DNA of 64,000 nt, from NCBI GenBank assembly GCA_039028635.1, contig JBCCHV010000003.1, positions 1 through 64,000 of the forward strand, read 5' to 3'. The stretch is from Acidobacteriota bacterium. Its GTDB lineage: Bacteria > Acidobacteriota > Thermoanaerobaculia > Multivoradales > JBCCEF01. The notes under the pieces are model-generated. The model did no database searches. It saw only the letters and a list, made by a program, of their open reading frames with translations, and was not told the DNA's origin. A program made the translations under genes and the position numbers. Within the stretch, counting starts at the first letter, position 1; each line of letters opens with the position of its first letter. This document shows positions 11,501 to 29,802 of the stretch, in pieces.

Positions 11501-14500
11501 GGCGGCCAGGCCGAGCGTCGTGATCGCGCCCAGGTTGACCGTCTTGGGGCAGGGCGCCGCGCCGCAATCACCGTAGTCGTCCACGCTGTACTCGGCCATC
11601 CCGAGCGGCAATGCGCCCTGGGCGTTCGCCTCGTCGGCGACGAAGAGCTCGACCGTCAGCGGATAGGTGGCTTGGGCTGGAGGCGTGTCGACCTGGAACG
11701 TCACGAGCAGGTCGCCGGTGGCACCGTCGACGGTGGTCAGCACGGGGAAGTTCTGCCCACGATTGGCGGTGTCGTCGACGTCGCCGGCATCGTTCGGCGT
11801 GCGTCCCGAGGTGCCTCCGACCTCGAGGTCGATCGCGAGTGTGTCGTTGGCGAAGAAGGCGTTGCCGCGAATGGCCACGCCGTCGCTGTCCTCGGGCACG
11901 ATGATGCCGGTGTCGTTGAACGCGAAGGTATTGCCTTCCCCTTCCTCGGATCCGCCGATGAGCGGGTCGGTGACGAAGCCAATCGGCGAGATGTTCACGC
12001 CGATGGTGTTGCCGAGGTCTTCTGTGCCGCCCTTGTCGGTTCCGATGAGGTTGCCCTGGATGATCGGGCGTTGCGAGTTGGCGAGGAAGATCCCGGCGCC
12101 GGGGAACCCCTGGGTTCCGGCGGTGTTGCCCGACATCAGGTTGCCGTCGCCGTCGTCCGGTCCACCGATCCGGTTGTCCTCGCCGAAGAAGTCGAGAATA
12201 CCCATCCCGTTCCCCGTTGCCATCGCGCCCGTTTCGTCCGTGCCGATGACGTTGCATCGCACGATGTTGCTGTCGCTTTGGTTGAGGAAGATGCCGAAAT
12301 CCACGAAGTTGCGGACATTGAGCCCTTGGAGGATCGATCCGCTGGCGCCCTCGCGAAGTTCGAGCCCGTTCAAGACCAGGCCGGCGCCGCCGATGTCGCC
12401 CTCCAGGACGATCTGGTAGGCGCCGCGATCCGCGATCGCATCGGTACAAACGGTCTCGTTGCCGGCCTGGGAGGCGCCGTCAACGATGAGCGGTTGCTGA
12501 ATCGCCGGCAGGTTCGAGGCGGGCGCGATGACGTGGGGACCCTCGCCCGCGATGTGGAAGGTGAGCCAGCTCAGGCCGGAGGCGCTATTCGCGTTGAGGA
12601 TCGCCTGGCGAAGGGAGCCGACGCCGCTGTCAGCGGTGGTGGTCACCACGTAGGCGTCGACCCCGACCGATGCGGAGAACTCACTGGTGTTCCCGTTGGC
12701 GTCCGTCGCGGTGGCCACGAGCACGTCGCCGGTCGCGACCAGTCCAGGATTCGTGAAGGTGACGACGACGGGCGATTGCGCGTCGGCCGTGCCGTACGTC
12801 TTGCTGCCGACGTAGACGGCGCCTTCTTCGCCGTCGCCGTCCGCCACATAGAGGTCGACGGTGAGCGGATAGGCCGAGTTGGCGGTCGCGCTGTCGACCA
12901 GGTAGGCGATCTCGAGCACGCCGCTCATGGTCGTGGCGCTCAGGATCTGCGGCGTGTTCTGGAGCTGGTTGGTCCCGGTGTCCGCGTCGTCCGCATCGTT
13001 CGCGGTCACACCGTCATTGCCCAGGTCGATGCCCAAGCCGGTATTGGCGAAGATGCGGTTGCCGCGAATCGTATGCCCGACCGTGACGCTCTGGTCGAGA
13101 ACCCCCACGTCGTTGTAGGCGATCACGTTGCCTTCACGCTCGCCGGTGCCACCGACCGTCGCGGTGCCGGCTTGGAAGTCCAGAAGAACGCCCGCGCCAC
13201 CGTTGCCGAGGGGGGCGAGCCCCGTCTTGTCGGTGCCAATGAAGTTGCCCTGGATGGTCTCGTCGAGGGCATTCACGCCGCGCAGGGCGAGACCGTCGCC
13301 CGTGTTGCCGGAAATCAGGTTGCCGTCGCCTTGATCGGAGCCGCCGACCGTCACGTTCGCGACGCTGCCGATGAAGATGCCGAGCACGTTGGCCGCCGCG
13401 GCGAGGCCAGTCTCGTCGGTGCCGATGAAGTTGCACTGAATGGACTGCAAACTGGCGCCGGCACCGGTGACCGAGATGGCTGTGTTCGCCCCACGGATGT
13501 TGAGCCCGCGGATCGTAGAGCCGCCCGAATTGGAGAAGAGCTGAAGGCCCCTGCTGGCGACGCCGTTGCCATCGATCACGATGCCGTAGGGCGGTCGATC
13601 GGGAATGGCCTGCTTGCAGACGCCCTCGCTGCCCGGCTGCGACGCGCCATCGATGATGACCGGATCCACGATGTCGGGCAAATTCGACGCCAGGGTGATC
13701 ACGTGCGGTCCGGCGCCCGGAATGGCGAAGGTGATGGTGTCGAGCCCTGCCTGCGTGTTGGCGCACGTGATGGCCTCGCGCAGAGAGCCGAGTCCGGTGT
13801 CGGCGGCGGTGGTCACCGTCAGGCAACCGGCTGCGGCGGTGGTCGTGCTCGAGAACTGCGAGGTGTTGCCATTCGCGTCCGTGGCCGTGGCGAGCACGGT
13901 ATCGCCATCCGCCACGTCGCCGCCCAACGCGATGCTCGCCGCCTTCGTGCACGGGGCGGCGCCGCATCCCGCGTAGTCGCTCGCGGTGTACGCATCGAAG
14001 CCCAGGTAGGTCATGCCCTCCTGACCGTCTCCGTCGGCCATGAAGAACTCGACCCGCAGCGGGTACGCGGCGTTGGTGGTCGTCGCGTCGACGGCATAGC
14101 TGATCTCGAGGGTGCCGCCGTCGATGATCGGCGTGCCGGTCAAGACCGGGAAGTTCTGAAGCTGGTTGTTGCCCGTATCGGGGTCACCCGCGTCGTTGGT
14201 GCCGCCGCCCGCCCCCAAGTCGATGCCCAATTGGGTGTTCGAGAAAATGTGGTTACCGAGAAGCGCAACGCGCGAGCTTTGCCCGACGGTGACGCCCTGG
14301 GCGCCGTTGAAAGCGATGGTGTTGCCGTCGCCGACGTCGGTGCCACCGATGGTGATGCCGTCCGCCGTGCGGGTGAAACCCGCGGCGATGCCCTGATCGC
14401 CGTTGGCGAGGGGTTGGGTGCCCGTGAGATCGGTGCCGATGAGGTTGCGCTTCATCTCCAGGCCGTCGACGTCGTCGACGATGACGCCGATGGCGGCGTT

Positions 14501-17500
14501 CCCGGAGATCAGGTTGTCGAGGATGGCGAGATCCTCCTGCGTTCCAGAGAAGCTGCTGACGACCACGCCGAAGTCGTTGGGCAGCGCCGCCGTACCGGTC
14601 TTGTCGGTGCCGATGAAGTTGTGCTGCAGGCGATTGCCCGAACCCCCATTGATGAACCTGACGCCGGCCACATTGCTGAGGGGGGAGGCGACAATCAGAT
14701 TGCCCTGGGTCGCGTCGGCGCCGCCGACCGTCACGTTATTCCCGGCCTCGATCCGTACTTCGCCATTGACGCCCACGCGGCTCATGCCGGTTTCGTTCGT
14801 GCCGAGGAAGTTGCAGGCGACGACGTGATTCGCGCTGCCGTCCACGTGGATCAGGCGACCGGAGAACCCGCGGACGTTGAGGCCCCGAATGGTCGATCCA
14901 TCGGAGCCGGCACCCAGCCTAAAGCCGGTCGAACTGACGATGACCTGGTAGGTGGGCCGGTCGGGAATCGCCGTGGTGCACACGGTGCCGTTGCCCGATT
15001 GCGTCGTGCCGTCGATCGTGACGGGCGCCGTGATCGTGGGCAGCGCGGTGCTGAGCGCGATCTCGTGCGGCCCGGTACCAGGGATGGCAAAGGTGATGGT
15101 GTCGTGCTCGGGCGTGGCGTTGGCGCAGGTGACAGCCTCACGTAGGGAACCGGTGCCGCTGTCGGCGGTGGTGGTGACGTTCAGGCAGCCCGGGGCCATG
15201 AGGGCCACGGAGGTCGAGAACTCGCTGGTGTTGCCGTTCGCGTCGGTGGCGAGGGCGACCACCCGATCGCCGGCGCCGAGGCCGAAAGTCGACGCCGTGA
15301 CCGACACCACGACGTCGCCCGGGTGGTCGCCGGCCTCGAAGACGTCCGAGAAGAGCAGGGTCTGCCCTTCCTCGACGTCCGCGTCCGGCGTGTAGAAATC
15401 CACCGCAATCGGATACGCCTGGTTCGACGGATCCGAATCGACGGTGTAGGTGATCTGGGCCTCGGTATCGACGATCAAGGCGCCCACCAGCGCAGGCGCG
15501 TTTTGCAGCAGGTTGGCGCCAAGATCAGCGTCGGCCGCGTCGTTGGCCGTGGCACCGTCGGCGCCGAGGTCGATGGCGAGGCCAGTGTTCTGGAAGAAGC
15601 TGTTGCCGCGGAGGTTGTTGGCCACGCCGCTCGCCGCGAGAATGCCCGTGACGTTGAAGGCGATCTCGTTGGCGTCCACGGCGAGCAGGCCACCGACGGT
15701 GTTGCCCGCGGAGGCGAGGGAGACACCGACCGTGTTGCTCATCGCAAGCATGCCGGTCTCGTCCGTGCCGATGCCGTTGCAGCGGATCGTATGGTCGGCG
15801 CTCAGCGCGACGATGGCGGCATTGCCGTTGCGGAGGTTGAGTCCCTGGATCGTCGAGCCCTCGGAGCCCGCGACCAGGGTCAGAAGGTCCGGACGCCCGC
15901 CCGCGGCACCGTCGATCACGATCTGGTAATCGGGCCGGCTGGCGAGATCGGTGCTGCACACCGTCTCGGCACCCGGCTGCGTGGCACCATCGATCGCCGT
16001 CACGCCGGTGATCGGCGGCAGGGCCGATAGAGGGCTGATCACGTGGGGTCCGCTGCCCGCGATGTCGAAGGTGATCATCGTCGGCACGGACTGCGGGTTG
16101 CTGTCGAGGATGGCCTGGCGCAGGGAGCCCGCGCCGGCGTCGTTGGTGTTGGTGACCTCGAAGGCGCAGCTCGAGCTGACGGCGATGGCGGGCGAAAATT
16201 CGGAGGTGTCGCCCAAGTTGCTCTGGGCCGTGGCAACCAGCGGGTCGCCGAACGTCACCCCCAGGTCGGCGCCCGTTCCCAGGACCGTGGATCTCACGTT
16301 GGGGAAGAACGTGTAGTTCGCCCTGCCGAGGGAGACAGCGCCCTCTTCGGCGTCGGCATCCGCGAGGAAGAACTCGAGGACATGGGTATTGGAACCCGTC
16401 GCCTGGCTCGAAGACAGGCTGTACTCGACGGTCAACTGATCGGAGCAGTCGAGGCTTGCGCTCACCAGGTCCGGGAAGTTCTGTCGCCGGTTGGGCCCAC
16501 CGTCACCGTCATTGTTGTCGTTCGGCGTCACGCCGTCATCTGCGAGGTCGATCCCGAGCCCGTCGTTCTCGAAGATGAAGTTCTGATCGATGCGGTTGCC
16601 CTGACTGGTGCCGCCGACAATGTTGACGCCGTTGCCGTCGTTGAATGCAATGGTATTGGCCAGGGTCGGGCCGTCGCTCTGAAACTGACCAATGCGGGAG
16701 TTTTCGATGTTGTTGCCGAAGTTGATGCCATCGAGTCCGTTCCCGAGATCGACCGTTTCGGTGCGGTCGGTCCCGATGAAGTTGCCGAGAATGAAAACGC
16801 GCGTCCGCAGGTTGTTGTTTTCATCGGTCACGTGGATGCCGTGCCCGACGTTGCCGCCGATGACGTTGCTGAAGGTATTTCTGCGGAAGCCGACCCCCAC
16901 GTTCAGGAGCTCGGTGCTGCCCCCGTCGTCGTTGAAAATCGTGATGCCGTTGCCACCGTTCGGAACCGCAGCGGTCTCGTCGGCGTTGGTTCCGATGGAG
17001 TTGCAGTGGACATCCGTATTGTCGGCCTCATGCCCTGAGATAAGGACGCCATCCCCGACGTTGCCTGAGATGAGATTGCCGTTGTTGCAGCCCCCGAAAC
17101 CGATGGAGTTGTCCGCACCGGTGACCGTGACGCCATGGCTACCGTTGGACACGGCAAAGGTGCCGCTGATGTCCGTGCCGATGTAGTTGGAAACCACTTC
17201 GTTGTCGTCACCGTCGACGGACACGCCAACGCCCGTGTTGCCGGAGATGACGTTCCGCCCGCTTCGACCGATGTCGTTGTCATCACCTGCGATGAAAATA
17301 CCCACGCCGTTGGGCACCGCAAAGGTGCCGGAGACGTCCGTGCCGATGAGGTTGGCATCGACCCTTGTACCGGTTCCGCCGATGCTGACGCCTCGGTTGG
17401 CATTACCGGAAATCAGGTTGCCGTTGCCTGACCTGCCGACCTCGTGATTTCCACTGATAGAAACGCCGATATTGTTCGGCACCGCGCCGGTTCCGGCGCG

Positions 17501-18298
17501 ATTGGTCCCGATGAAATTGTCGAGAATGCTGATACTGCCGATCACCGAGCCGACACGAATACCGTTGCCGTTGCCTGAAATCAGGCTGGTTCGAATGGTG
17601 CTTCCTCCAGCGGCAGCCTGGAGGTCGAAGCCTCGATTGGTCCCCTGCGTGGCTGAAGAACCGTCCGCGTTCGTACCGACGAAGTTGCACTCAAACGTAT
17701 GGTTGCCCGACTGAACGATGATCGTACGGAAGTTGAATCCTTGCAGGTTCAATCCCTTGACGGTCGATCCGTCGCTGCCGTCACTGAAGCGAAACGCGGT
17801 GTTGGCCCCGGCACCGGTCAGGAGGTCTCCCAAGATCGAAAGGGTGTAGGTTGGCCGATCGGGGATCGGCATGGTGCATGCACCAGAATTGCCCGGCTGG
17901 GTCGTGCCGTCGAGAACGACCGGATCGGTGACGATCAACTGATCGACCAACTCGATCTCGACTGGGGCGGTGCCAGGGATGTTGAATGCGATCGTGTCCG
18001 TGCCCGAGCCGGTGGTGCAGTCGCCGCTGGTGGTGTTGTTGTTGGCGTTGGCGTTGTTGAGGGCCTCGCGGAGGGTGCACACACCGTCGCCTTGGGTCTC
18101 GTTGTCGAGGCTCGAGTTGACCGTGATGGTGGCGGCCCACATGGGCTCGGCGGCTACCAGGAGGGCCAGCCCGGCGAAGAGTAGCGTCGTGAGCCAACGG
18201 CCACGTGTCCGCCGGCTGGCGGTCGAGTCCGACGAGACGCCGGGGATGGGCGGGTCGATCCGGGGAAGGACGGAGGGGGGGGTGTGGATGAACGTCAT
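8516..18298 (-). CDS. Giant secreted CSLREA / beta-helix / DUF11 protein
   Basis: A 3260-aa extracellular protein. A GAGG site lies upstream of the ATG at 18298, and the signal peptide RRTRGRWLTTLLFAGLALL ends near residue 55; the frame is open further upstream but lacks these signals. The mature protein opens with a CSLREA domain (ITVNSSLDNETQGDGVCTLR). Five blocks follow, each with a T..AD.G.GSLR(E/Q)A start, a FAIPG.GPH.I...LP.I..P element and many GN.IGTD.TG.....N right-handed beta-helix rungs. Then come four near-identical DUF11 (beta-sandwich) repeats, a fifth diverged DUF11, an Ig-like part and a C-terminal sandwich ending VFADGFESGDTSAWSVTVP. Likely a surface or released adhesin or matrix protein; ligand unknown. 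The 3' end abuts an IS3 remnant but keeps the family-typical ending, so it appears complete. Confidence 0.9.
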   Translation of the reverse strand: MTFIHTPPSVLPRIDPPIPGVSSDSTASRRTRGRWLTTLLFAGLALLVAAEPMWAATITVNSSLDNETQGDGVCTLREALNNANANNNTTSGDCTTGSGTDTIAFNIPGTAPVEIELVDQLIVTDPVVLDGTTQPGNSGACTMPIPDRPTYTLSILGDLLTGAGANTAFRFSDGSDGSTVKGLNLQGFNFRTIIVQSGNHTFECNFVGTNADGSSATQGTNRGFDLQAAAGGSTIRTSLISGNGNGIRVGSVIGSISILDNFIGTNRAGTGAVPNNIGVSISGNHEVGRSGNGNLISGNANRGVSIGGTGTRVDANLIGTDVSGTFAVPNGVGIFIAGDDNDIGRSGRNVISGNTGVGVSVDGDDNEVVSNYIGTDISGTFAVSNGSHGVTVTGADNSIGFGGCNNGNLISGNVGDGVLISGHEADNTDVHCNSIGTNADETAAVPNGGNGITIFNDDGGSTELLNVGVGFRRNTFSNVIGGNVGHGIHVTDENNNLRTRVFILGNFIGTDRTETVDLGNGLDGINFGNNIENSRIGQFQSDGPTLANTIAFNDGNGVNIVGGTSQGNRIDQNFIFENDGLGIDLADDGVTPNDNNDGDGGPNRRQNFPDLVSASLDCSDQLTVEYSLSSSQATGSNTHVLEFFLADADAEEGAVSLGRANYTFFPNVRSTVLGTGADLGVTFGDPLVATAQSNLGDTSEFSPAIAVSSSCAFEVTNTNDAGAGSLRQAILDSNPQSVPTMITFDIAGSGPHVISPLSALPPITGVTAIDGATQPGAETVCSTDLASRPDYQIVIDGAAGGRPDLLTLVAGSEGSTIQGLNLRNGNAAIVALSADHTIRCNGIGTDETGMLAMSNTVGVSLASAGNTVGGLLAVDANEIAFNVTGILAASGVANNLRGNSFFQNTGLAIDLGADGATANDAADADLGANLLQNAPALVGALIVDTEAQITYTVDSDPSNQAYPIAVDFYTPDADVEEGQTLLFSDVFEAGDHPGDVVVSVTASTFGLGAGDRVVALATDANGNTSEFSTSVALMAPGCLNVTTTADSGTGSLREAVTCANATPEHDTITFAIPGTGPHEIALSTALPTITAPVTIDGTTQSGNGTVCTTAIPDRPTYQVIVSSTGFRLGAGSDGSTIRGLNVRGFSGRLIHVDGSANHVVACNFLGTNETGMSRVGVNGEVRIEAGNNVTVGGADATQGNLIVASPLSNVAGVRFINGGSGNRLQHNFIGTDKTGTAALPNDFGVVVSSFSGTQEDLAILDNLISGNAAIGVIVDDVDGLEMKRNLIGTDLTGTQPLANGDQGIAAGFTRTADGITIGGTDVGDGNTIAFNGAQGVTVGQSSRVALLGNHIFSNTQLGIDLGAGGGTNDAGDPDTGNNQLQNFPVLTGTPIIDGGTLEISYAVDATTTNAAYPLRVEFFMADGDGQEGMTYLGFDAYTASDYAGCGAAPCTKAASIALGGDVADGDTVLATATDANGNTSQFSSTTTAAAGCLTVTTAADTGLGSLREAITCANTQAGLDTITFAIPGAGPHVITLASNLPDIVDPVIIDGASQPGSEGVCKQAIPDRPPYGIVIDGNGVASRGLQLFSNSGGSTIRGLNIRGANTAISVTGAGASLQSIQCNFIGTDETGLAAAANVLGIFIGSVANVTVGGSDQGDGNLISGNTGDGLALRGVNALDETIQGNFIGTDKTGLAPLGNGGAGVLLDFQAGTATVGGTGEREGNVIAYNDVGVLDQSVTVGHTIRGNRIFANTGLGIDLGNDGVTANDADDADTGTNQLQNTPQILSATTMSGVLEIAYLVDSATANSAYPLTVDLYVADGDGEEGAVYVGSKTYGTADAQSPVVVTFTNPGLVATGDVLVATATDANGNTSEFSASVGVDAYVVTTTADSGVGSLRQAILNANSASGLSWLTFHIAGEGPHVIAPASNLPAIQQPLIVDGASQAGNETVCTDAIADRGAYQIVLEGDIGGAGLVLNGLELREGASGSILQGLNVRNFVDFGIFLNQSDSNIVRCNVIGTDETGAMATGNGMGILDFFGEDNRIGGPDDGDGNLMSGNTAGTQGFPGAGIFLANSQRPIIQGNLIGTDKGGTEDLGNTIGVNISPIGFVTDPLIGGSEEGEGNTFAFNDTGIIVPEDSDGVAIRGNAFFANDTLAIDLEVGGTSGRTPNDAGDVDDTANRGQNFPVLTTVDGATGDLLVTFQVDTPPAQATYPLTVELFVADEANAQGALPLGMAEYSVDDYGDCGAAPCPKTVNLGAITTLGLAAGQQVVSTATDDEGNTSEFSDGATVAGLVDLAVSIAESIDPVVAGSGVGNLVYTVTVTNEAPVNATGVVLDNTLTLPLGVTVVSQVPSAGSFSGTTWSLGPLGAGASETLAVTLTAAASAAAGVDTIADTVTVTAVDGTDTDASNDTASESTSIARSVDLGVSVVESVDPAVAGSGMGNLIYTVTASNGGPSDATGVVLENVLTLPTGVTVVSQVPSAGSLSGTTWTLGSLPSGGSAMLTVTLTVDASAAAGTDVITNAATVAAVTETDANSANDAASESTSITRQLDLAVSVAESIDPAVAGAGVGNLVYTVLVTNNGLIDATGVVLENVLTLPAGVAADSQVPTIGTFSGTTWTLGTLASSASATLTVTLTVDSSAAVGTDVIANAAAITAVNEADSDTSNDTASESTSIGRGVDVSVSVGESIDPVVAGSGVGNLVYTVTVTNDGRSDATGVTLSNSLTLPTGVAADSEVPSAGTFSGTTWTLGTLAAGTSETLTVTLTADASAAAGTDVITNAATITAVNEGDSDTSNDTASESTSIVRELDLAVSLVEAGGLSAVLPGGTLTYEVTASNVGPSDATGVVLNGTVPDHTSFDSAASDAGWQCVPDATAGSACTLDVGDLASGDTSPVAFVVLVDASLSRDVTEITNEASITTNSGEVDVNPADNTDALATPVDLPPIVEGVDTVAMPLAEGLVDGDLVEVPITQILLAFSESVTGGAAADSFRLFEAGADGVVSSSCLGLQGDDQEITIVSTVYDDAVLYDTPTSRLELGAGLPLQKGRYRVLACGDEIEDAAGQLLDGDVDGVAGGDFGVGFSVRASSLLENPNFDQALAPWSSLDFDWSDEDADGAPSSGATAAMPVTEAVLDHPCIEVDASQVGLVSSMLVWIDDPTGASPAVVLELDFFDESGCQGTLVTSQAMSSVEGGTGMAWLESKASVELPENVVSARPRLRYRTTDAASSVALVDRITLIPSLVFADGFESGDTSAWSVTVP
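9871..11427 (-). repeat. Four tandem 387-bp repeats encoding DUF11 domains
   Basis: Four in-frame units of 387 bases (129 aa) within the giant gene, each beginning (D/V)(L/V)(A/G/S)VS...ES(I/V)DP and ending in SNDTASESTSI. They are similar enough at DNA level to recombine, so copy number may vary between strains or be collapsed in assemblies. Edges are approximate. Confidence 0.85.
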
Positions 18299-18530
18299 GG
18301 CAGGGATCCTCTGAATCGATGTTCGGGCGTACCGGACGCCCCCCGACTCATCGCCGAGCGCGAAACGCCCCGGTTCGGAGGCCGCCCTACCAAGGCATGC
18401 GCAGGAATCGCAAGCAGTGGCACATCCACCGTCAACACCAGTAAGTGCCGCACAGACTTGGTCTCGGTCTGAACCGACTCTCGGGGACCGGCGCCTAGAC
18501 TTTGAATGTGCGGGAAGAAGCGGTCGCCTA

Positions 18531-19717
18531 GTGGCCAGGATACGGCTCACCCATCGAAGCATTGACACCCTCACCGCCGGCAAGTGGCTGACGGACTACT
18601 GAGACGATCGCTTGCCCGGTTTCGGCGTCCGGGTCGCGCAGAGCGGGCGCAAGTCCTTCATCGTCCGCTACAGCGCCGCCGATGGCCGCAAGCGTCGCCT
18701 CACCCTCGGGGCCTATCCGATGCTGACCCTCGCCGATGCCCGCGACAAGTCTCGCGAGGCTCTGGCCGCCGTCGCACGGGGCGAAGACCCCAGGGTAAGA
18801 AGAAGGCCGAGCGGCGGGCGCCGACCTTCGGTGAGCTGGCGAAGGTTTACCTCGAGCGCCACGCCAAGGTGAAAAAGCGCCGCTGGCGGGAGGACGAGCG
18901 GGTGCTCCGGGTCGACCTTTTGCCGCACTGGAAGCGCCGCAAGGCCAAAAGCATCGGCCGGCAAGACGTCAGCGAGGTGCTCGACGGCATCGTCGCCCGT
19001 GGAGCGCCGATCATGGCGAACCGCACAAAGGCGCTGATCTCGAAGATCTACAACTTCGGCATCGGCCGCGGCCTGGTCGAGCACAATCCCTGCCTCGGCG
19101 TGCCGATGCCAGCCAAGGCTCGGCAGCGCGACCGGGTGCTGTCCGAAGAAGAGATCCGAGCCCTGTGGCGCGTGCTCGACCACGCCCACCCGGTGATGGC
19201 CGCCACCTTCAAGATGCGGCTGCTCACCGCTCAGCGCGGCGTCGAGGTGCTCGCCATGCGCTGGGAGCACATCGACGGCGACTGGTGGACGAATCCCGCC
19301 GAGGTGGCCAAGAACGGCCTGACCCACCGCGTGCCACTGGCGCCGCAGGTCCAGTCGCTGCTCGACGAGCTACGGCCGGTCACCGGCGGGTCCGTGTGGG
19401 TCTTTGCGAGCCCGCGCCGCAAGGGTGCCCACATCACCGCCGTCCAGAAGGCGGCCGAGCGAATCGCGAAGCGGGCCGAGGTCGACTTCGTACCCCACGA
19501 CCTGCGCCGGACGGCGGCGAGCTTCATGACCTCGATGGGCATCTCTCGGCTGGTGGTGTCGAAGATCCTCAACCACGTCGAGAGCGGCATCACCGCGGTC
19601 TACGACCGGCAGAGCTACGACGCCGAGAAGCGTCAGGCCCTGGTCCGATGGGCGGGTAAAATGGACGAGATCCTGGGCGCGAGTCGGAGCACGAGCAATG
19701 TGATCCAAATCGCTTGA
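18531..19717 (+). pseudogene. Tyrosine integrase, P4/DUF4102 type, with stop and frameshift
   Basis: A GTG start at 18531 reads MARIRLTHRSIDTLTAGKW, then meets an in-frame TGA at 18600-18602 where a Trp codon (YWDDRLPGFGVRV) is expected. The arm-type DNA-binding domain continues in the same frame to EDP, then a base is missing in the C-run at 18788-18791. The rest continues in the next frame (QGKKKAERRAPTFGELAK...) to 19717. The catalytic part is intact: Arg in TAQRGVEVLAMRW, HDLRRT, His in ILNHVE and Tyr in TAVYDRQSY. Two disruptions suggest a dead integrase; a downstream restart could still give a ~370-aa C-terminal product. It marks the left side of an accessory island. Confidence 0.85.
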
Positions 19718-19738: not shown

Positions 19739-20029
19739 TTGTCTCTCGAAATCCCTCGGCCGCTAGAGGCCAGACTCGCTCGCGAGGCAGAGCGCCGCGG
19801 AGTATCGACCGAGCAACACGCTCTCGAAATACTTGAGGCTCGGCTTGGGCGAAGTGGCTGGCTGCGCAGTGGGGCCGAGGTCGTGGCGTTCTGGCGCCGC
19901 GAGGGGGTCATCGGCTCCTGGCCAGCTATCGTGGACAGCAGCGCCCACGCCCGCAGAATACGGCAGAAGGCCGAGAAGCGAGCACGATCGTGTGCTCGAT
20001 CGGACGAGCGAGGAAGCGACCTCCCATGA
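19739..20029 (+). CDS. Small antitoxin-like protein upstream of Fic gene
   Basis: A 96-aa protein starting at TTG, preceded at 8 bases by AAAGGAG. The N-terminus [20 protein letters not shown] is followed by [15 protein letters not shown], the RHH/FitA-like pattern (strand followed by two helices) of small DNA-binding antitoxins. The C-terminal half is basic. Its stop codon overlaps the start of the Fic gene as ATGA at 20026-20029, so the two are translationally coupled. A natural reading is an antitoxin or autoregulator for Fic, but classical FicTA antitoxins look different and this Fic protein already has its own inhibitory motif. Confidence 0.65.
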
Positions 20030-21078
20030 GCACCTTCTCCCCGATCTTCACGATCACCAATGCCATCACGCGAGGGCTGACGTCCATCGAGCGCGCACGG
20101 GGCTTTCTGGAAGCGGCATCGCTATCTGAAGAGTGGCTTCGCCGCATGAGCCAGCGGGCGCTGCTGCTCGAAGCCCACCATACGACGCACATCGAAGGAA
20201 CTGAGCTGACCATCGAACAAGCCGAGCGCCTGTGGACAGGGCAAGAGGTCGAGCAAGCTCAAGAAGACGATGTCCGAGAGCTGTTGAACTACCGCGAGGC
20301 CTTCAACCTGGTCTCGGACTACCTCGACAGCGGAGAGCCGGTCACCGAGGGGCTGATCCGGGAGATCCACAAGCGGCTGGTGGACGGTGTGCGAGGCGGC
20401 GAAGGAGGACCCGGCGCCTATCGCACGGTTCAGAACTACGTGATCAGCAGCCGAACGCGTGAGGTGATCTACACGCCACCGCCGCCCGAGGCGGTCGCAC
20501 CGGCCATGGGAGACCTGGTGACGTGGCTGCGCGAAGAGGACGCGATTCACCCGGTCTTGGTCGCGGGCATCGCCCAGTTTCAGCTCGTGCACATTCACCC
20601 CTTCGTCGACGGCAACGGACGTACCTCCCGCCTGCTCTCAACCCTTTGTCTGTACCGCGCAGGCTACGACTTCAAGCGTCTATTCACGATCAGCGAGTTC
20701 TACGATCGCGACCGAACCGCCTTCTACCAAGCGCTCCAAAGCGTGCGCGACCATGGGATGGACCTGACCAGCTGGCTCGGGTACTTCGTCGAAGGACTCG
20801 CGACACAGCTGGCAGAGGTCAAGGCTCGAGGAGAGGTCGCGATCCGGACAGACGTCATCGCCGCCGAGCAGGGGCTCAATCCCCGCCAGGCAGCTGCCCT
20901 CGACCATGTCCTTGCGCACCATAGGCTCACAGTCGGCGATTTCGAGGGGCTCTTTCCCAAGGTCAGCCGCCGAAGCTTGCAGCGTGACCTGAAAGCGCTC
21001 CTCGCCCAGGGAATCCTGAAAGAGGTGGCAACGGGTCCGACCGACCCCAATCGTCACTACGTGCTCGGGAAGCTATGA
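20026..21078 (+). CDS. Fic family AMP-transferase-like protein
   Basis: A 350-aa protein. The Fic core motif [12 protein letters not shown] (from His191) is complete, so it probably transfers AMP, or another nucleotide-monophosphate moiety, to protein hydroxyls. An N-terminal inhibitory helix TTHIEGTE (about residues 53-60) matches the (S/T)xxxE(G/N) motif of class II Fic proteins that self-inhibit. The N-terminal Fic_N-like region and C-terminal winged-helix region ([20 protein letters not shown] then [11 protein letters not shown]) are those of the common bacterial Fic/DUF4172-type proteins. Start at 20026, from the AGGAAG site and the ATGA overlap with the small gene upstream; the frame is open to 19990. 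Confidence 0.9.
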
Positions 21079-22315: not shown

Positions 22316-23044
22316 ATGAAGATGAATCTCGAGAAGCAGCACGCCCTGTTGTCCGCCGGGACATTCGATGAAGTCATGGAAGCCTCGTTTGACCGTGGCC
22401 AGGGTGGGATCACGGCAGGGGAGATGCTGCTCTTCATGCTGATGGCCAGCGAGCATTGCCCTGAGCACATGAGTGTTGGTCGCGCGGCGTACCTTCGGGT
22501 TCTCGACCTCAAGGACAAGAAAGATCACTTAGGACGATCCAGAAGCCGTGGAAGATCCACAGTTTTGAACGACTGGAGCTGCTTCAGGTCGGTGGCCCAC
22601 CTCTGGGCTGCCTTTCAGATCACCAGAGAGCATGGCGGCGAGGATTGCAGTTTCGGCTTGAAGCCAGGGACCGAGAAAGAGTTCCTGGCGGTGGCCGAGT
22701 ATCTCCGCAATCTTGGAGAGGCTACCTTTGCACGCGCCCAGGAGTCCAAACACGGGCCTATTCTCAACCCCTCTCAGACTTGGCGAGTCCCTGGGGAACT
22801 GATCTTGCCCAGGACGGTCAGAGCGTCCTGGTGGGACAAGCACCGTGGCAGCCTCTGCTCTGGATCGCTTTCTCGCACGCCGAATCACCCGGGGACATCT
22901 CCAGGCAGGCGATCGAGGACTGGATCTTCTTCGGAAGGAGCGAAAGGAGCTGGTCGCCAAAGACGATCCGGAATCGCTTGCAGGCGCTTGGGTTGTTCTT
23001 CGACTGGATGGTTCGGGAAGGGCTTCTTCGGAGCAATCCAGTAG
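22316..23044 (+). CDS. Hypothetical protein, 3' half doubtful
   Basis: The frame gives 242 aa. Residues 1 to about 165 look like a genuine soluble protein (MKMNLEKQHALLSAGTFDEV...). After about 22800 the composition becomes Arg/Ser/Gly-rich and overlaps the better-supported integrase frame. The gene has probably lost its true 3' end to a frameshift or to insertion of the integrase. No family recognised. It follows the 384-aa gene by 30 bases. Confidence 0.45.
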   Translation: MKMNLEKQHALLSAGTFDEVMEASFDRGQGGITAGEMLLFMLMASEHCPEHMSVGRAAYLRVLDLKDKKDHLGRSRSRGRSTVLNDWSCFRSVAHLWAAFQITREHGGEDCSFGLKPGTEKEFLAVAEYLRNLGEATFARAQESKHGPILNPSQTWRVPGELILPRTVRASWWDKHRGSLCSGSLSRTPNHPGTSPGRRSRTGSSSEGAKGAGRQRRSGIACRRLGCSSTGWFGKGFFGAIQ

Positions 23045-23649
23045 CAGAGATCCCAAAGCCGAAGCTGCCCGTGAGAATCCCGCGGCACCTCACTCAGGAA
23101 GAGGCGTTTCAGCTCCTGGACTGGACGAAGAACTTCCCATTCGGCTATCTGTTCGAAAGGTCTCGTGCCGCCGCCATCATCGCGACCTTCATCTACACGG
23201 GAATCCGTGCTGAAGAGCTGAGGATGCTCAAGATGTCAGCCATTGACCTCGCCAACAGGACGCTCTTCGTAGCTTCTGGGAAGGGCAACAAGGACCGCAT
23301 CATTCCGATCACCCGTTCGTTGGCGCTCTTCTTGGAAGAGTATCTGAGGGACCGGAGACGGATGCGAAGATCTTGCCCGTACTTCTTCACAGCGATGAGG
23401 CAGGATAGCCAGATGGGGCCTCTGGTGGTCAAGCGTCTGGTCGATCGCCTCAGGGAAAGGAGCGGGATCTACTTCTACCCACACATGCTCCGCCACACCT
23501 TCGCGACGCTGATGCTAGAAGGTGGCTGCGACCTCTTCAGCCTGTCGAAGATGATGGGTCACTCCGACATCAAGACGACAACGATCTACCTGTCGGCGAC
23601 GACAGGCCACTTGCGGGAACAGATCAGGAAGCACCCGCTGGATGCCTAA
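22831..23649 (+). CDS. XerC/XerD-like tyrosine recombinase, N-terminus uncertain
   Basis: About 270 aa. The core-binding part ISRQAIEDWIFFGRSERSW is followed by the catalytic domain. The catalytic set is complete: Arg in YTGIRAEELRML, Lys in GKGNKDRIIP, HMLRHT, His in MMGHSDIKTT and Tyr in TTIYLS. The frame is open from 22645, but the upstream portion overlaps the preceding gene and does not look like the missing SAM-like end. GTG at 22831 is the assumed start. Another frame (VAASALDRFLARR near 22845) resembles the usual integrase beginning, so a small indel near 22880 may have damaged the N-terminus. Probably an island or transposon-type recombinase. Confidence 0.7.
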   Translation: MGQAPWQPLLWIAFSHAESPGDISRQAIEDWIFFGRSERSWSPKTIRNRLQALGLFFDWMVREGLLRSNPVAEIPKPKLPVRIPRHLTQEEAFQLLDWTKNFPFGYLFERSRAAAIIATFIYTGIRAEELRMLKMSAIDLANRTLFVASGKGNKDRIIPITRSLALFLEEYLRDRRRMRRSCPYFFTAMRQDSQMGPLVVKRLVDRLRERSGIYFYPHMLRHTFATLMLEGGCDLFSLSKMMGHSDIKTTTIYLSATTGHLREQIRKHPLDA

Positions 23650-25169: not shown

Positions 25170-25489
25170 TCAACCGAGCAGCATCACGGCCCCGGCCGCC
25201 GGATCGCGGCCTTGACGGCTCAGCAGGTACTGAGCTGGATCCTCGCCGCAGAGATTGGCGGTCTCGACGAGGCTCTAAAGGATGACGGCGACTTTGGCGC
25301 CGCGGCGCGGGCGCTTGCCGGAGAAGTTCTTGCGCCCGATGACCGGGCCGTGCAGGGCCCGCTCAGCTGCGCTTTTGTCGAGCGGGATGCGTGCGCTGTC
25401 GGGGAACATCGTCAGCCCTTTCCAGTGCTTGAGCAGGTAGCACAACGCCTTGTCGCAGAGGAAGCACGCAGTACTTGCGCTGACGCTAA
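25170..25489 (-). pseudogene. IS66-family transposase C-terminal remnant
   Basis: The minus strand reads KALCYLLKHWKGLTMF, then SARIPLDKSAAERALHGPVI and GRKNFSGKRPRRGAKVAVIL. An in-frame TAG follows (25275-25277) in place of the usual Tyr, then SLVETANLCGEDPAQYLL and a stop at 25170. This is the conserved C-terminal third of an IS66 TnpC transposase. The 5' part is gone; it begins directly at the 3' end of the response-regulator gene. Inactive. Confidence 0.85.
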
Positions 25490-26275
25490 CTACCTTCTGA
25501 CAACATAGCAGGTCTCGAAGTTCAGATCGTAGCCCTTCCAGTCTCTGGTGTTACGGATGATCTCGTGTTGCTCAACCGCTCCTAGGCCTCGACTCTCATA
25601 CTCTCTGGCAATCCACTTCCGGAACTCAGACACCTGCTTCCGTACTGTAGCTTCTTGCACGCTAACTGTCTTCGCGATCTCCTTTCCTGTCATTCGTCGC
25701 GTGTCGTCGTCAGCTATGCCGCGGGAGGACATTAGTGTCCGGCTGGCCAAAAGCCACAAGAGCTTCGCGAAGCGAGGAGGCCCAACTTCAATGCCGCTGA
25801 TGAGCACAGTTCCATTCGTGAAGAGAATCTGGTGCTTCCCTGTAGTGCTTTCGTGGGTACTCGATTCGCCTATAGCGCGAGTTATCGCGGCGAGCTTGTC
25901 GTCAAGAGGGACAGGACTGTCTTGAAACGGCTTTGTGATGTAGTCATTCGCTCCGGAAGTCAGCGCTCTAACTGCGGTTTGTGATGACTCCTCGTAGGCT
26001 GTCATCACAATCACCGGAAGCTGGTTGGGGGCGAACCGATCTCGGATATGAGCAAGCGTGTCAAATCCGACTTGTGTGTGCGGATACATATCGCCATCGT
26101 GCGTCGGCAATCGGAGATCTAGCAGGGCGAAGTCGAATTGCTGCTGGTCTAGAAGGTGGTAAGCCTCTCGTTGCGTAGGAGCGACGGTTACCCGGTGGCC
26201 ATCGTGCTGAAGCCTCATGCGGAGAACGTCAGCCACAACATGATCGTCTTCGATGACGAGGGCTTCATATCCCAT
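25490..26275 (-). CDS. Response regulator with divergent winged-helix output
   Basis: A 261-aa protein. The receiver domain has acidic pocket residues in VIEDDH, the phospho-acceptor Asp53 in FALLDLRLP, Thr in VMTAY and Lys in YITKPF. An insertion after LRLPTHDGDMYPHT is longer than usual. The C-terminal half (about 140-255) has a short beta-hairpin (LFTNGTVLISGIEVGPPRFA), then helices TGKEIAKTVSVQEATVRKQV. It ends NTRDWKGYDLNF, like the wing of OmpR-type DNA-binding domains, but diverged. Its start overlaps the kinase gene by 11 bases, with GGAGAG upstream. It likely receives phosphate from that kinase and acts as a transcription factor. Confidence 0.88.
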   Translation of the reverse strand: MGYEALVIEDDHVVADVLRMRLQHDGHRVTVAPTQREAYHLLDQQQFDFALLDLRLPTHDGDMYPHTQVGFDTLAHIRDRFAPNQLPVIVMTAYEESSQTAVRALTSGANDYITKPFQDSPVPLDDKLAAITRAIGESSTHESTTGKHQILFTNGTVLISGIEVGPPRFAKLLWLLASRTLMSSRGIADDDTRRMTGKEIAKTVSVQEATVRKQVSEFRKWIAREYESRGLGAVEQHEIIRNTRDWKGYDLNFETCYVVRR

Positions 26276-27431
26276 GGTTGCACTCTCCTCGCTTGAAAGG
26301 TAGCCTAATCGTCACTGTCGTCCCTATTCCTAGTTCGCTTTCGATCGCTAATTGTCCTTGATGCTCGCGCTCGATGATCTTTAGGGCTAAGGGTAGACCC
26401 AAACCTATTCCCCCTCGCCTCTTCTTGAGCGACCTGAATCTCTTGGTTGCGCTTTCCAGCTGAAGTGGATCCATTCCTGTTCCCGTATCAGCAACTGAAA
26501 GCAACAGATGGTCTGGCGGATCCTTCATTGCGTTGACTTCGAGCCGTGCGCCTGAAGTTCTCTCAGACAACGACTCGAATGCGTTAGAGAAGACATTAAC
26601 CAGTGCTCGAACAAGACGGTCCTTGCTGGCCTCGATCTTGATGTCATCTGGGACGTCAAGAACGACTTCTACCTCTGCTCCGTCCAGGTACGCTTCGGCC
26701 TTCTCCTGCGCCAAGCATAGTGCCTCAGCAGCTAAGGAGTGGAAAGACTCCACCTGAAAAACTAGCTCAACGTTACGCGAGTATTCAAGAAGGCTGCTGA
26801 CGAGCGTCTTGAGATAGCGCGACCGGTCTTCAATCTTATCAACGATTTCGAGGATCTCCGGGGCGCCACCACTGTAGCTACCCACTCTGCGTTTGAGCTC
26901 CAGAATCAAGCCTTCCACCGCCGTACGGTAGGTGTTCAGTTCGTGGGCGGTGTCTCCTGCAAGCTCCTCGTAGTGCCTCTCGCCAACGCGGATCGCCGCC
27001 TCGTAGATCCTTTCGGATGTCTCGCCCTCCAGGCTCTTAATGGTCTCGAACGCGAAACGTGCCTGGCGATCCGACTTCTCCGCCGAACTCGTGATTCTTG
27101 CTAGCTTTCGCCTACCTCGCTCAGCTGCCTGGCGGACCCACCTGTTGCGATCTCTAGCAAGCTGCTCAACTAGGCTGTTGGCCGCAGGACGTCTTGCCTC
27201 GACCAGTACCGGAACCACAGCTCTCCTGACCTCCCACTTGGCGTCTACTGCGAGCTTTGCCAGGCCATCGATAATGCGCTCAACGGTATGCTCTGTTGGA
27301 AGGTCTTGAAGCAGCCCGCGAAGATACTCGATCGCAGACAACCTCTCTTGCCAGGACTCGGAGGCGGTCTTTGCCGCGATCTTCTCGAGGATTGCGCTAT
27401 GCCCCTGTCGTTCGTTTCCATCAGTAGCCAT
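26265..27431 (-). CDS. Soluble histidine kinase with N-terminal HEAT-like repeats
   Basis: A 388-aa protein from the ATG at 27431 (GGAAAGAG upstream). No membrane segment, so cytosolic. Residues ~15-115 form HEAT/Armadillo-like helices (LAKLAVDAKWEVRRAVVPVL, then LARDRNRWVRQAAERGR). The dimerisation helix has the H-box AGDTAHELNTYR, with His163 as predicted phospho-site. The ATPase domain has N-box NVFSNAFESL, G1 DTGTGMD and G2 GGIGLGLP. Upstream it overlaps the ATPase gene by 11 bases, and downstream the regulator by 11 bases, a strict three-gene operon. The HEAT part probably senses a protein or nucleic-acid partner, perhaps the ATPase (inference). Confidence 0.88.
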   Translation of the reverse strand: MATDGNERQGHSAILEKIAAKTASESWQERLSAIEYLRGLLQDLPTEHTVERIIDGLAKLAVDAKWEVRRAVVPVLVEARRPAANSLVEQLARDRNRWVRQAAERGRRKLARITSSAEKSDRQARFAFETIKSLEGETSERIYEAAIRVGERHYEELAGDTAHELNTYRTAVEGLILELKRRVGSYSGGAPEILEIVDKIEDRSRYLKTLVSSLLEYSRNVELVFQVESFHSLAAEALCLAQEKAEAYLDGAEVEVVLDVPDDIKIEASKDRLVRALVNVFSNAFESLSERTSGARLEVNAMKDPPDHLLLSVADTGTGMDPLQLESATKRFRSLKKRRGGIGLGLPLALKIIEREHQGQLAIESELGIGTTVTIRLPFKRGECNHGI

Positions 27432-29322
27432 ACCGCTCTTTCCGCTTCTGAAACGCTTCTCTCCCTCCCTCAAGAATCGTCTCGATCTCGTCCTTCACCT
27501 CATCTACCGTTCCTGCTGCCTTAACTGAGGCCCTCCGGCCTGTGGACTGCAAGACAACCACTCGCTGGGCATCGCCCAGGACAGGTACGTTGGGATTGTG
27601 GGTCACGAATATTAGCTGGCGGCGGCCGCTGACACCCCGGATACTCTTGACGATAGTTTCGTAGATGAAGGCATTGTCTAGGTTGTCCTCTGGCTGGTCG
27701 ATCAAGAGCGGGCTGGCGCTCTCCAGCAATAGTATTGGCAGTATCGTGGTGCATTTCTGGCCCGTGGAAAGCACGGTTGAGTCCTTGTAGTCCGGACCAT
27801 CCTTGAGTTCGATAGTAGGGCGGTCGTGAAGGTCGACAGTTTCTACCTCGAACACAGTAGTTGTATCCTTGATCTGAAGGATAAGGCGGTTCGCTCGATC
27901 GGTGTCGATCTCCAGATGGTCTGACAAGGTCTGGGAGTCGCCCCGTTGGACGATACTCGCGAACTCATGCGGCGGAATCCTCTGAACTACTCGATCAACA
28001 ACCTGAGTGTACTTGAATCCCGAACCCTTCATAGCTTCCAGCAACAGACTCCGGTAGGAGTCGGTATTTCCATACTGCTCAATCTGGACGCGGATAGCTG
28101 GAGAGAGCTGTTCAGAAAGCGACTGTGCCACAGTCAAGCGTTCTTCGAATCGATCATCTTTCAAGTCTGACAGCCGGTGGAGTAGTGTCGCTCGGGCCAA
28201 TTCCGTCTGCTGCAATACAGCCTGGCGCTCTTCAAGCCGCTTCTGTTCTTCCTCGAGCTCGGCTTCGCGACGAAGAAGCTGATCGCGTTCCTTTAGCTTG
28301 TCTTTCTCCTTCTCGCGTTCGTCTAGGAGATCTTGGTAGGCTTTCTCCTGCTTGATGTGCAAGGCCGATAGATTGTCAGACTCTTTCTGGAGTTCTTCAC
28401 GCATGCCCTCGAGTAGGCGAGACGCCTCTTGGACCTTTAGGATAAGCTCCTTGGCGCTATCGGTGAGTATGTCTTTTATCCGCTGAAGCCGCGTGCCATT
28501 CGGTCCGCTAAGTATGCGTTCGTGTATCAGCTCACTTATGGACGCGGGCAAATCGGTGAGGCCTCTGCTGAGCCTTTCAGTCTCGTCCGACAGAATCTCG
28601 TCAAGCCGGTTGAGAGCGCGTGTCTCCTGATCTCGAAGGGCCTTGCCTTGACTCGCTTGACGGAGGACTTTTCCTTCTTCATCGCCCGCTTCAATCTTGT
28701 GAGCTTTGAGTTTTTCCGAGACTTCAGGCAGAGCGGATAATTTCTCTCTAAGGCCTGTGATGTCGCCTCGAAGCTTGAGGATCTTCTCTGCGTTCTCTCG
28801 TAGTTCCGATTCAAGTCGTTGAATCTGCCTAGTGATCTCACTGATTTTCTCTTCGACGAACTTATCGATGAGCTTTAGCTGAAAGAGTGGATCGTTTGCG
28901 ATTTCCTCGACCTGGTTCTGGCTATAGAAATCGGCTGAGAAGATCGTGCCCCTCCCTATCTCGATTCCTACCGGGTCGCCGGCAGAGTTCATGACTAGCG
29001 AAGTCCCATCGGCATCTTTCCGAACTCTATAGCGGATGTCGTCGCGGGTCTCGACCTCTAGCTCGACCTGTCCGCCCTGGAGGTTGGCGGTGATGAGCTT
29101 GTCGACTCTACGATAGTGGGCGGAAGAATCTGTCTGATCCGGCATGTGATCGAGCGTCCAGCGCAGGACTTCGAGCACTGTTGTCTTTCCCGCACCTCTT
29201 CCTCCGATTAGGCAGTTCAAACCATCCTTGAACTCGACGTCTAACCCATCGAGGAAGCCTCCCTTGACTCGTATGCTACGTATCCGATGGAAGGCATTCG
29301 AAGTAGGCTCAATCCCGATCAT
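27421..29322 (-). CDS. SMC/RecN-like ABC-type ATPase
   Basis: A 633-aa protein. Walker A GGRGAGKTT at residues ~40-48. A long coiled-coil middle (about 150-420) is rich in Glu, Lys and Leu. The C-terminal lobe has ABC signature LSTGQKC (~516), Walker B PLLIDQPEDNLDN (~540) and the switch His in FVTHNPNVPVLG. This is the two-lobed head plus coiled coil of SMC/RecN/RecF-type ATPases and resembles the ATPase part of TrlF-type proteins, but no PHP or nuclease domain is attached. GGAAG lies 6 bases before the ATG. First gene of the operon with the HEAT kinase and regulator. Probably binds DNA or DNA ends and hydrolyses ATP. Confidence 0.85.
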   Translation of the reverse strand: MIGIEPTSNAFHRIRSIRVKGGFLDGLDVEFKDGLNCLIGGRGAGKTTVLEVLRWTLDHMPDQTDSSAHYRRVDKLITANLQGGQVELEVETRDDIRYRVRKDADGTSLVMNSAGDPVGIEIGRGTIFSADFYSQNQVEEIANDPLFQLKLIDKFVEEKISEITRQIQRLESELRENAEKILKLRGDITGLREKLSALPEVSEKLKAHKIEAGDEEGKVLRQASQGKALRDQETRALNRLDEILSDETERLSRGLTDLPASISELIHERILSGPNGTRLQRIKDILTDSAKELILKVQEASRLLEGMREELQKESDNLSALHIKQEKAYQDLLDEREKEKDKLKERDQLLRREAELEEEQKRLEERQAVLQQTELARATLLHRLSDLKDDRFEERLTVAQSLSEQLSPAIRVQIEQYGNTDSYRSLLLEAMKGSGFKYTQVVDRVVQRIPPHEFASIVQRGDSQTLSDHLEIDTDRANRLILQIKDTTTVFEVETVDLHDRPTIELKDGPDYKDSTVLSTGQKCTTILPILLLESASPLLIDQPEDNLDNAFIYETIVKSIRGVSGRRQLIFVTHNPNVPVLGDAQRVVVLQSTGRRASVKAAGTVDEVKDEIETILEGGREAFQKRKERYGY

Positions 29323-29747: not shown

Positions 29748-29802
29748 TGGAGCCGACGGCCGGATTTGAACCGGCGACCTGCTGATTACGAATCAGCAGG
29801 TC
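29748..29802 (-). tRNA. tRNA-Thr(CGU) 3' fragment (not functional)
   Basis: On the minus strand the sequence has an anticodon arm GCTGA-TTCGTAA-TCAGC (anticodon CGT), variable loop AGGTC, a T-arm GCCGG-TTCAAAT-CCGGC, and an acceptor 3' strand ending CGTCGGC-T-CCA. The D-arm and 5' acceptor strand are absent; leuS sequence begins only 15 bases away. Such 3' tRNA pieces are typical attachment-site relics of tRNA-targeting integrases. The bases flanking the anticodon arm extend it to a perfect 10-bp hairpin (29776-29785 with 29793-29802), which could now help terminate leuS transcripts. Confidence 0.85.

What the first reader, a model, noticed from the sequence alone, without database searches (positions are those of the whole stretch)
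25490..29322. SMC-like ATPase + HEAT-repeat soluble histidine kinase + response regulator operon in an island
Seen: three minus-strand genes, each overlapping the next by 11 bases, encoding a coiled-coil ABC-type ATPase (GGRGAGKTT, LSTGQKC, DQPEDN), a cytosolic kinase with HEAT-like N-terminus (His163 in AHELN), and a receiver/winged-helix protein (Asp53). Known: SMC/RecN-like ATPases sense DNA, and defence islands carry such ATPases; a two-component anti-phage system (Detocs) exists but has a different make-up. Inference: this could be a DNA-damage or phage-sensing switch in which the ATPase signals through the HEAT kinase. I know of no described system with this gene set.
Basis: partly seen in the sequence, partly recalled or inferred. 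Interest (0 to 1): 0.75.

Follow-up and report, generated by a model that had tools for sequence, protein, structure and literature searches.

The report
DNA-sensor-type ATPase wired to two-component relay
Three overlapping genes in a mobile island form a conserved unit in which an ATPase of an anti-phage protein family, lacking that family's usual enzyme domain, comes with a soluble histidine kinase and a response regulator; this would be a defence alarm run through bacterial two-component signalling, although its function is untested.

Summary
Three minus-strand genes overlap by 11 nt each: an ABC ATPase (633 aa), a cytosolic HEAT histidine kinase (388 aa, His163), and an OmpR-type response regulator (261 aa, Asp53). 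The ATPase is not a plain SMC protein. It is the ATPase half of the TrlF/Ppl family, whose members normally carry an N-terminal PHP domain; here PHP is absent.

In related loci, every full-length PHP-less ATPase with readable downstream DNA (92 loci, 75 distinct at 90% identity) is followed by the kinase, and the regulator follows wherever enough sequence was held (two short loci excepted). None of 21 PHP-fused relatives with room has them. Phosphorelay residues are essentially invariant. In a tree the kinase-linked ATPases form one clade, so the PHP/phosphorelay exchange happened once. There are two subtypes: A (window; regulator with winged-helix domain) and B (plasmids; regulator fused to an APH-like kinase domain). 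Neighbours are rich in defence genes; homologues ride on plasmids and prophage-like contigs.

Most likely it is a mobile anti-phage/anti-plasmid switch: a DNA-responsive ATPase signals through a phosphorelay. Defence function and ATPase-to-kinase signalling are inferred. No description was found, but the 2020 ABC-ATPase survey could not be read.

The parts
27421..29322 (-). PHP-less TrlF/Ppl-type ABC ATPase with short coiled coil, 633 aa
   Evidence: AAA_23 7e-12; NCBIfam TrlF_fam_ATP 2.6e-97 to profile 286-944 of 944, 327.7 bits, below the 350-bit cut-off; aligned with relatives
29179..29205 (-). Walker A, GGRGAGKTT (residues 40-48)
   Evidence: Direct reading; G40, R42, G43, G45 and K46 invariant in 11 relatives
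27751..27771 (-). ABC signature LSTGQKC (residues 518-524)
   Evidence: L518, S519, G521, Q522 and C524 invariant
27685..27708 (-). Walker B LLIDQPED (residues 539-546); glutamine in place of the usual catalytic glutamate
   Evidence: D542, Q543, P544, E545 and D546 invariant; the same Glu-to-Gln change is reported for Lamassu LmuB (PMC10586767)
26265..27431 (-). Soluble HEAT-histidine kinase, 388 aa, no transmembrane segment seen
   Evidence: AlphaFold2 pLDDT 86.9; PDB fold matches ZraS and HK853 kinase cores
27102..27374 (-). HEAT-like N-terminal helical repeats of the kinase (about residues 20-110)
   Evidence: HEAT_2 residues 23-105; paired helices in the model; W66, R69, D94 and V99 nearly invariant
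26943..26945 (-). Phosphoacceptor His163
   Evidence: His in 55 of 55 and 92 of 92 homologues
25490..26275 (-). OmpR/PhoB-like response regulator, 261 aa
   Evidence: AlphaFold2 pLDDT 89.3; top PDB matches over both domains are DrrD 1kgs, MtrA, RpaA and KdpE bound to DNA
26117..26119 (-). Phosphoacceptor Asp53 of the receiver
   Evidence: D10 and D53 in 54 of 54 homologues
25493..25840 (-). C-terminal winged-helix domain of the regulator (about residues 146-261)
   Evidence: Helices H167-184, H197-203, H208-228 plus a terminal beta wing; fold match to OmpR-type regulators

Best explanation
This is a mobile three-gene defence module in which an ABC ATPase of the TrlF/Ppl kind has a phosphorelay in place of the PHP effector domain of its relatives. 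Proposed working: (1) the ATPase dimer binds an abnormal DNA state made by a phage or plasmid, such as ends or replication intermediates, and ATP locks it (inferred from family and Walker B Gln). (2) The ATP-bound complex engages the HEAT domain of the soluble kinase (inferred from gene pairing and the absence of any other sensor domain). (3) The kinase phosphorylates itself on His163 and then Asp53 of the regulator (chemistry strongly supported by conserved residues). (4) In subtype A, including this window, the regulator's winged helix binds DNA and changes transcription of defence or phage genes; in subtype B, the regulator's APH-like domain phosphorylates an unknown target to halt the cell or phage.
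For: HK follows the ATPase in 92 of 92 loci, and an RR follows in 53 of 53 first-set loci with room. 0 of 21 PHP-fused ATPases with 1 kb or more downstream have either. PHP is detected in the fused relatives and missing here. A tree gives one TCS clade with SH-aLRT 94, split into A 97 and B 100. His163, N-box, G-boxes, RR D10 and D53 are conserved. Models: HEAT plus kinase core; OmpR-type RR. Type B RR: receiver plus APH/TCAD9. Defence neighbours: type III R-M, BrxL, pAgo, DrmD, CBASS cyclase, caspase, TIR, GmrSD, WYL; 172 PADLOC models matched against 36 in control genes. Carriage on plasmids and prophage-like contigs. The ATPase family includes the curated anti-phage protein Ppl.
Against: No functional data. 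No physical link between ATPase and kinase was tested. Subtype A has no obligate effector gene, so how DNA binding alone would stop a phage is open. The control for defence neighbours comes from only five Acidobacteriota genomes, and PADLOC models are redundant. The window's own island has only a Fic protein and integrases nearby, not a recognised defence system.
Confidence: 0.6

Rival explanations
1. A lifestyle switch of mobile elements: the ATPase senses DNA damage or replication state and the regulator controls excision, lysogeny or transfer genes of the element that carries it, rather than defending the cell.
For: Subtype A often sits in prophage-like contigs with serine recombinase, DUF2924, AAA_24 and DUF669 genes, and its output is a transcription factor. 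The window copy is next to integrases.
Against: It also occurs in defence islands without phage genes (L034, L035). The elements that carry it differ widely. Subtype B has an enzyme-like output instead of a DNA-binding one. WYL regulators beside it resemble those of defence systems.
Confidence: 0.17
2. A host DNA-damage response operon: the ATPase detects broken DNA and the relay induces repair genes.
For: Distant profile similarity of the ATPase to Rad50/SMC/SbcC.
Against: Patchy presence (about 1% of sampled Acidobacteriota genomes), absence from the same-genus genome G238, and carriage on plasmids and defence islands; repair systems are normally core.
Confidence: 0.1
3. The ATPase and the two-component pair are neighbours by accident and work separately.
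For: Two-component pairs are common; the window's genome has many kinases and regulators.
Against: 92 of 92 loci with overlapping or near-abutting genes, 75 distinct at 90% identity, and a single clade.
Confidence: 0.01

Closest known systems
TrlF family PHP-ATPase (NCBIfam NF045780; trlF of the Photorhabdus temperature-restriction locus, PMC7554251)
   Same: Same ATPase region end to end, including the C-terminal EGGxxAFxxR motif; mobile, patchy distribution
   Different: No PHP domain; below the curated cut-off; own kinase and regulator genes instead
Ppl anti-phage protein (NCBIfam NF042955)
   Same: Shared C-terminal ATPase lobe (2e-35)
   Different: Ppl is a single PHP-ATPase protein without phosphorelay (own knowledge); match far below the cut-off
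Lamassu / ABC-3C (LmuABC)
   Same: Three-gene logic with a short coiled-coil ATPase of about 650 aa and Walker B Gln, with a variable effector (PMC10586767)
   Different: No LmuC middle component or LmuA effector; the second and third genes are a histidine kinase and a receiver protein
Detocs (DtcABC; own knowledge, paper not held)
   Same: Cytosolic two-component relay used for defence with exchangeable output domains
   Different: Detocs has no ABC ATPase, and its known output is a PNP-type ATP-cleaving domain; none here
Classical OmpR-type two-component systems
   Same: Kinase core and OmpR/PhoB-like regulator
   Different: Kinase has no membrane sensor; HEAT repeats and an obligate ATPase partner instead

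Membership tests
TrlF family | N-terminal PHP domain fused to the ATPase | tested here: not met
   Window ATPase aligns only to profile 286-944; no PHP in Pfam, while fused relatives show it
TrlF family | Score above the curated cut-off of 350 bits | tested here: not met
   327.7 bits; other PHP-less members 248-287 bits; PHP-fused 404 and 465 bits
TrlF family | TrlF-type ATPase core | tested here: met
   2.6e-97 across the whole ATPase
Ppl anti-phage | Score above curated cut-off 1000 | tested here: not met
   122 bits
Lamassu/ABC-3C | LmuB-type ATPase | tested here: inconclusive
   Best PADLOC LmuB match 6e-10, best stretch residues 13-104 only
Lamassu/ABC-3C | Middle component (LmuC) and LmuA effector | tested here: not met
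   Genes 2 and 3 are kinase and receiver proteins; no such Pfam or PADLOC match
Detocs | Regulator with PNP effector domain | tested here: not met
   No PNP match among 38 regulators or the type B regulators examined
Detocs | Kinase sequence homology to DtcA | not tested
   No Detocs sequences at hand; PADLOC 2023 gave no Detocs match
Two-component system | Phosphoacceptor His, ATP-binding boxes and receiver Asp | tested here: met
   His 92 of 92, Asp 54 of 54, G-boxes 90 or more of 92
Two-component system | Phosphotransfer from this kinase to this regulator | not testable with these tools
   Needs biochemistry
SMC/RecN proteins | SMC or RecN curated family score | tested here: not met
   recN 27.7 bits of 407.85; SMC_prok_B 19.3 of 567.35; SMC_N 29.7 of 40

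The most novel reading that the evidence does not exclude
A previously undescribed class of bacterial immune systems in which an ABC ATPase that detects foreign DNA transmits its signal by histidine-aspartate phosphorelay, with exchangeable outputs (DNA-binding winged helix, or APH-like kinase), separated from its PHP-fused relatives by one exchange between a PHP domain and a two-component system.
Probability: 0.5. Interest if true: 0.82.

Novelty: new variant of a known kind. Interest (0 to 1): 0.66.

Why it matters
Two-component systems are the main environmental signalling route of bacteria, usually fed by membrane or small-molecule sensors. An ATPase of a defence family that feeds one would join immune sensing to phosphorelay signalling and allow amplification, reversal or transcriptional priming before commitment. 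The natural pairs (PHP-fused against phosphorelay-linked ATPases of one family) make a testable system for asking what these ATPases sense, because a phosphorylated receiver is an easy readout. It is spread over several phyla and plasmids but is not in the 2023 PADLOC set as far as tested.

Tried and rejected
Kinase-only search of genome contigs gave no relatives, because the chosen peptides were not conserved. E. coli complete genomes have no close copy of the Klebsiella trio. Known-name searches (TrlF, ABC-3C, TCAD9, Detocs, PHP-SMC) found no paper describing the trio; the Krishnan 2020 and Detocs papers are not held. Promoter and terminator scans are at chance level. No conserved fourth gene was found downstream across subtype A; families shared there are phage or mobile-element genes or unrelated. 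The idea that the regulator was cut short by the IS66 remnant beside it was rejected: relatives of similar length exist and the model shows a complete winged helix. A plain SMC/RecN assignment was rejected.
Full report
Observation. The three genes are present exactly as described. Reading the minus strand, the ATPase stop overlaps the kinase start (ATGGCTACTGA) and the kinase stop overlaps the regulator start (ATGGGATATGA), 11 nt each, which suggests translational coupling (inference).

What the ATPase is. Its best curated match is not SMC or RecN but the TrlF family of PHP-ATPases, 2.6e-97, covering profile positions 286-944 of 944. The roughly 285 N-terminal positions that hold the PHP domain are missing. 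It also matches Ppl, an NCBIfam-curated anti-phage protein, in the C-terminal lobe (2e-35). It scores 327.7 bits against a cut-off of 350, and other PHP-less members 248-287, while PHP-fused relatives pass with 404 and 465. PHP is found by Pfam in five of six PHP-type relatives tested. The window's own genome also holds a PHP-length TrlF paralogue at C9; its PHP domain was not called by Pfam at 1e-3. Walker A, Q-loop, signature, Walker B and H-loop residues are invariant in 11 relatives, with Gln at the usual catalytic Glu position. A review reports the same substitution in Lamassu LmuB and argues it makes hydrolysis slow and activation lasting (PMC10586767). Applying that to this protein is inference.

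Co-occurrence. ATPase-based searches, which know nothing of kinases, brought in loci from Acidobacteriota, Planctomycetota, Verrucomicrobiota, Gemmatimonadota, Myxococcota, Magnetococcales and viral contigs. In the first set, 55 of 55 PHP-less ATPases with at least 1 kb downstream are followed on the same strand by the kinase, and 53 of 53 with at least 1.9 kb by kinase and regulator. None of 17 PHP-fused ATPases has either. The eight plasmid type B loci in that set were picked by me from plasmid hits, but with the Leclercia plasmid they cover every genus with a long match. A second set from two further phyla gave 37 of 37 with the kinase, 35 with the regulator visible in the 1.5 kb held, and 0 of 4 PHP-fused ones with room. 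Together these are 92 loci, 75 distinct at 90% identity, with the phosphoacceptor His in 92 of 92. One 273-aa ATPase fragment (L186) has no kinase and looks like a remnant. The seeds were trio members, so remoter relatives with other partners could be missed.

Evolution. A tree of 76 ATPase regions puts all kinase-linked ATPases in one clade (SH-aLRT 94), divided into subtype A (97) and subtype B (100), with all PHP-fused ones outside. The tree is a quick one with long PHP branches and is unrooted, so it shows one exchange between PHP and phosphorelay but not its direction.

Subtypes. In subtype A (window, L034, L035 and most others) the kinase is about 370-390 aa with HEAT repeats and the regulator has a receiver plus winged helix. 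The window regulator model (pLDDT 89) aligns over both domains with OmpR/PhoB regulators, including KdpE on DNA. Some relatives add a second helix-turn-helix. In subtype B (plasmids of Klebsiella, Leclercia, Shinella, Rhizobium, Phaeobacter, Rhodococcus, Caballeronia, Vibrio and Pantoea, and chromosome G214) the kinase is about 300 aa and the regulator about 480 aa, with a C-terminal APH/TCAD9 domain in those scanned. All nine type B sequences keep the HxDxHxxN loop and the following [IV]D[YF] motif (read by eye), so an active kinase is plausible.

Kinase input. The kinase has no recognisable transmembrane or small-molecule sensor domain. Its N-terminus is HEAT-like, with W66 and R69 nearly invariant in subtype A, and the remainder matches ZraS and HK853 cores. 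The constant partner is the ATPase, so the simplest reading is that the ATPase is the input. This is inference; no complex could be modelled.

Context. Within about 7 kb of 25 subtype A loci, 112 genes matched 172 PADLOC models at 1e-15, including type III R-M, BrxL, pAgo, DrmD, an oligonucleotide cyclase, caspases and WYL regulators. Pfam adds GmrSD, a TIR effector and XamI. 110 control genes from five Acidobacteriota genomes matched 36 models; most of those listed are alternative models of one Ser/Thr kinase. PADLOC models are redundant and the control is not matched by phylum, so this is support, not proof. In L034 the trio starts 27 nt after a type III restriction gene. A WYL regulator lies beside the ATPase in 9 of 47 loci with upstream sequence. 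Several loci carry serine recombinase, DUF2924, AAA_24 and DUF669 genes typical of prophage-like elements.

Window island. Right after leuS lies a 50-nt piece, 86% identical to the 3' part of the genome's intact tRNA-Thr(CGT) on another contig. A tyrosine integrase lies at 18584-19717 and another at 22645-23649, with a Fic gene between them. In the same-genus genome G238 only leuS matches in this region, and the sequence after it is unrelated. The trio is therefore accessory here, probably brought by a tRNA-targeting element (inference).

Mechanism. Shown: gene unit, domain content, conserved phosphorelay residues, clade exclusivity, mobile and defence context. Inferred: DNA sensing, ATPase-to-HEAT signalling, and anti-phage effect. 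Subtype B gives the clearer defence logic, with a phosphorelay-gated kinase-like effector. Subtype A would act through transcription, and its targets are unknown; this is the weakest link of the explanation and the reason the element-switch rival keeps 0.17.

Known systems. It works like Lamassu/ABC-3C in gene logic and like Detocs in using a phosphorelay, but it meets neither definition (membership table). It shares the TrlF ATPase core but fails TrlF membership because PHP is absent. Literature searches found no description; the most relevant paper, the 2020 ABC-ATPase classification, is not held.

Noticed in passing
29748-29797 (-): tRNA-Thr(CGT) 3' fragment directly after leuS; intact gene on G000:C28:3816-3890. 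Likely attachment-site remnant of an integrative element.
   Followed up: partly
18584-19717 (+) and 22645-23649 (+): Two tyrosine recombinase genes at the left part of the island; the first looks like a P4-type integrase by eye.
   Followed up: partly
19990-21078 (+): Fic/DOC family gene in the same island.
   Followed up: no
about 25310-25480 (-): Remnant that reads like an IS66 transposase C-terminus just downstream of the regulator (by eye, not searched).
   Followed up: no
8516-18583 (-): 3355-aa secreted-looking repeat protein just outside the island.
   Followed up: no
L118 1343-3959: Vibrio tectivirus-like phage PE001 carries PHP and most of the ATPase on two separate genes, a split TrlF.
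   Followed up: no
L117 7204-9822: TrlF-type PHP-ATPase in a P2-like Yersinia phage between the gpA replication gene and portal gene, an accessory-gene position.
   Followed up: no
L040 12535-15815: Caballeronia plasmid: subtype B trio a few genes from a DUF1837 plus DEAD/DEAH helicase pair, Hachiman-like.
   Followed up: no
G406:C1 (L153, L157, L159): Three nearly identical trio loci in one genome, suggesting recent spread of the carrying element.
   Followed up: no
Piscirickettsia salmonis plasmids: 34 plasmids with a short ATPase C-terminal match (54.5% to the Klebsiella subtype B protein), possibly decayed or split copies.
   Followed up: no
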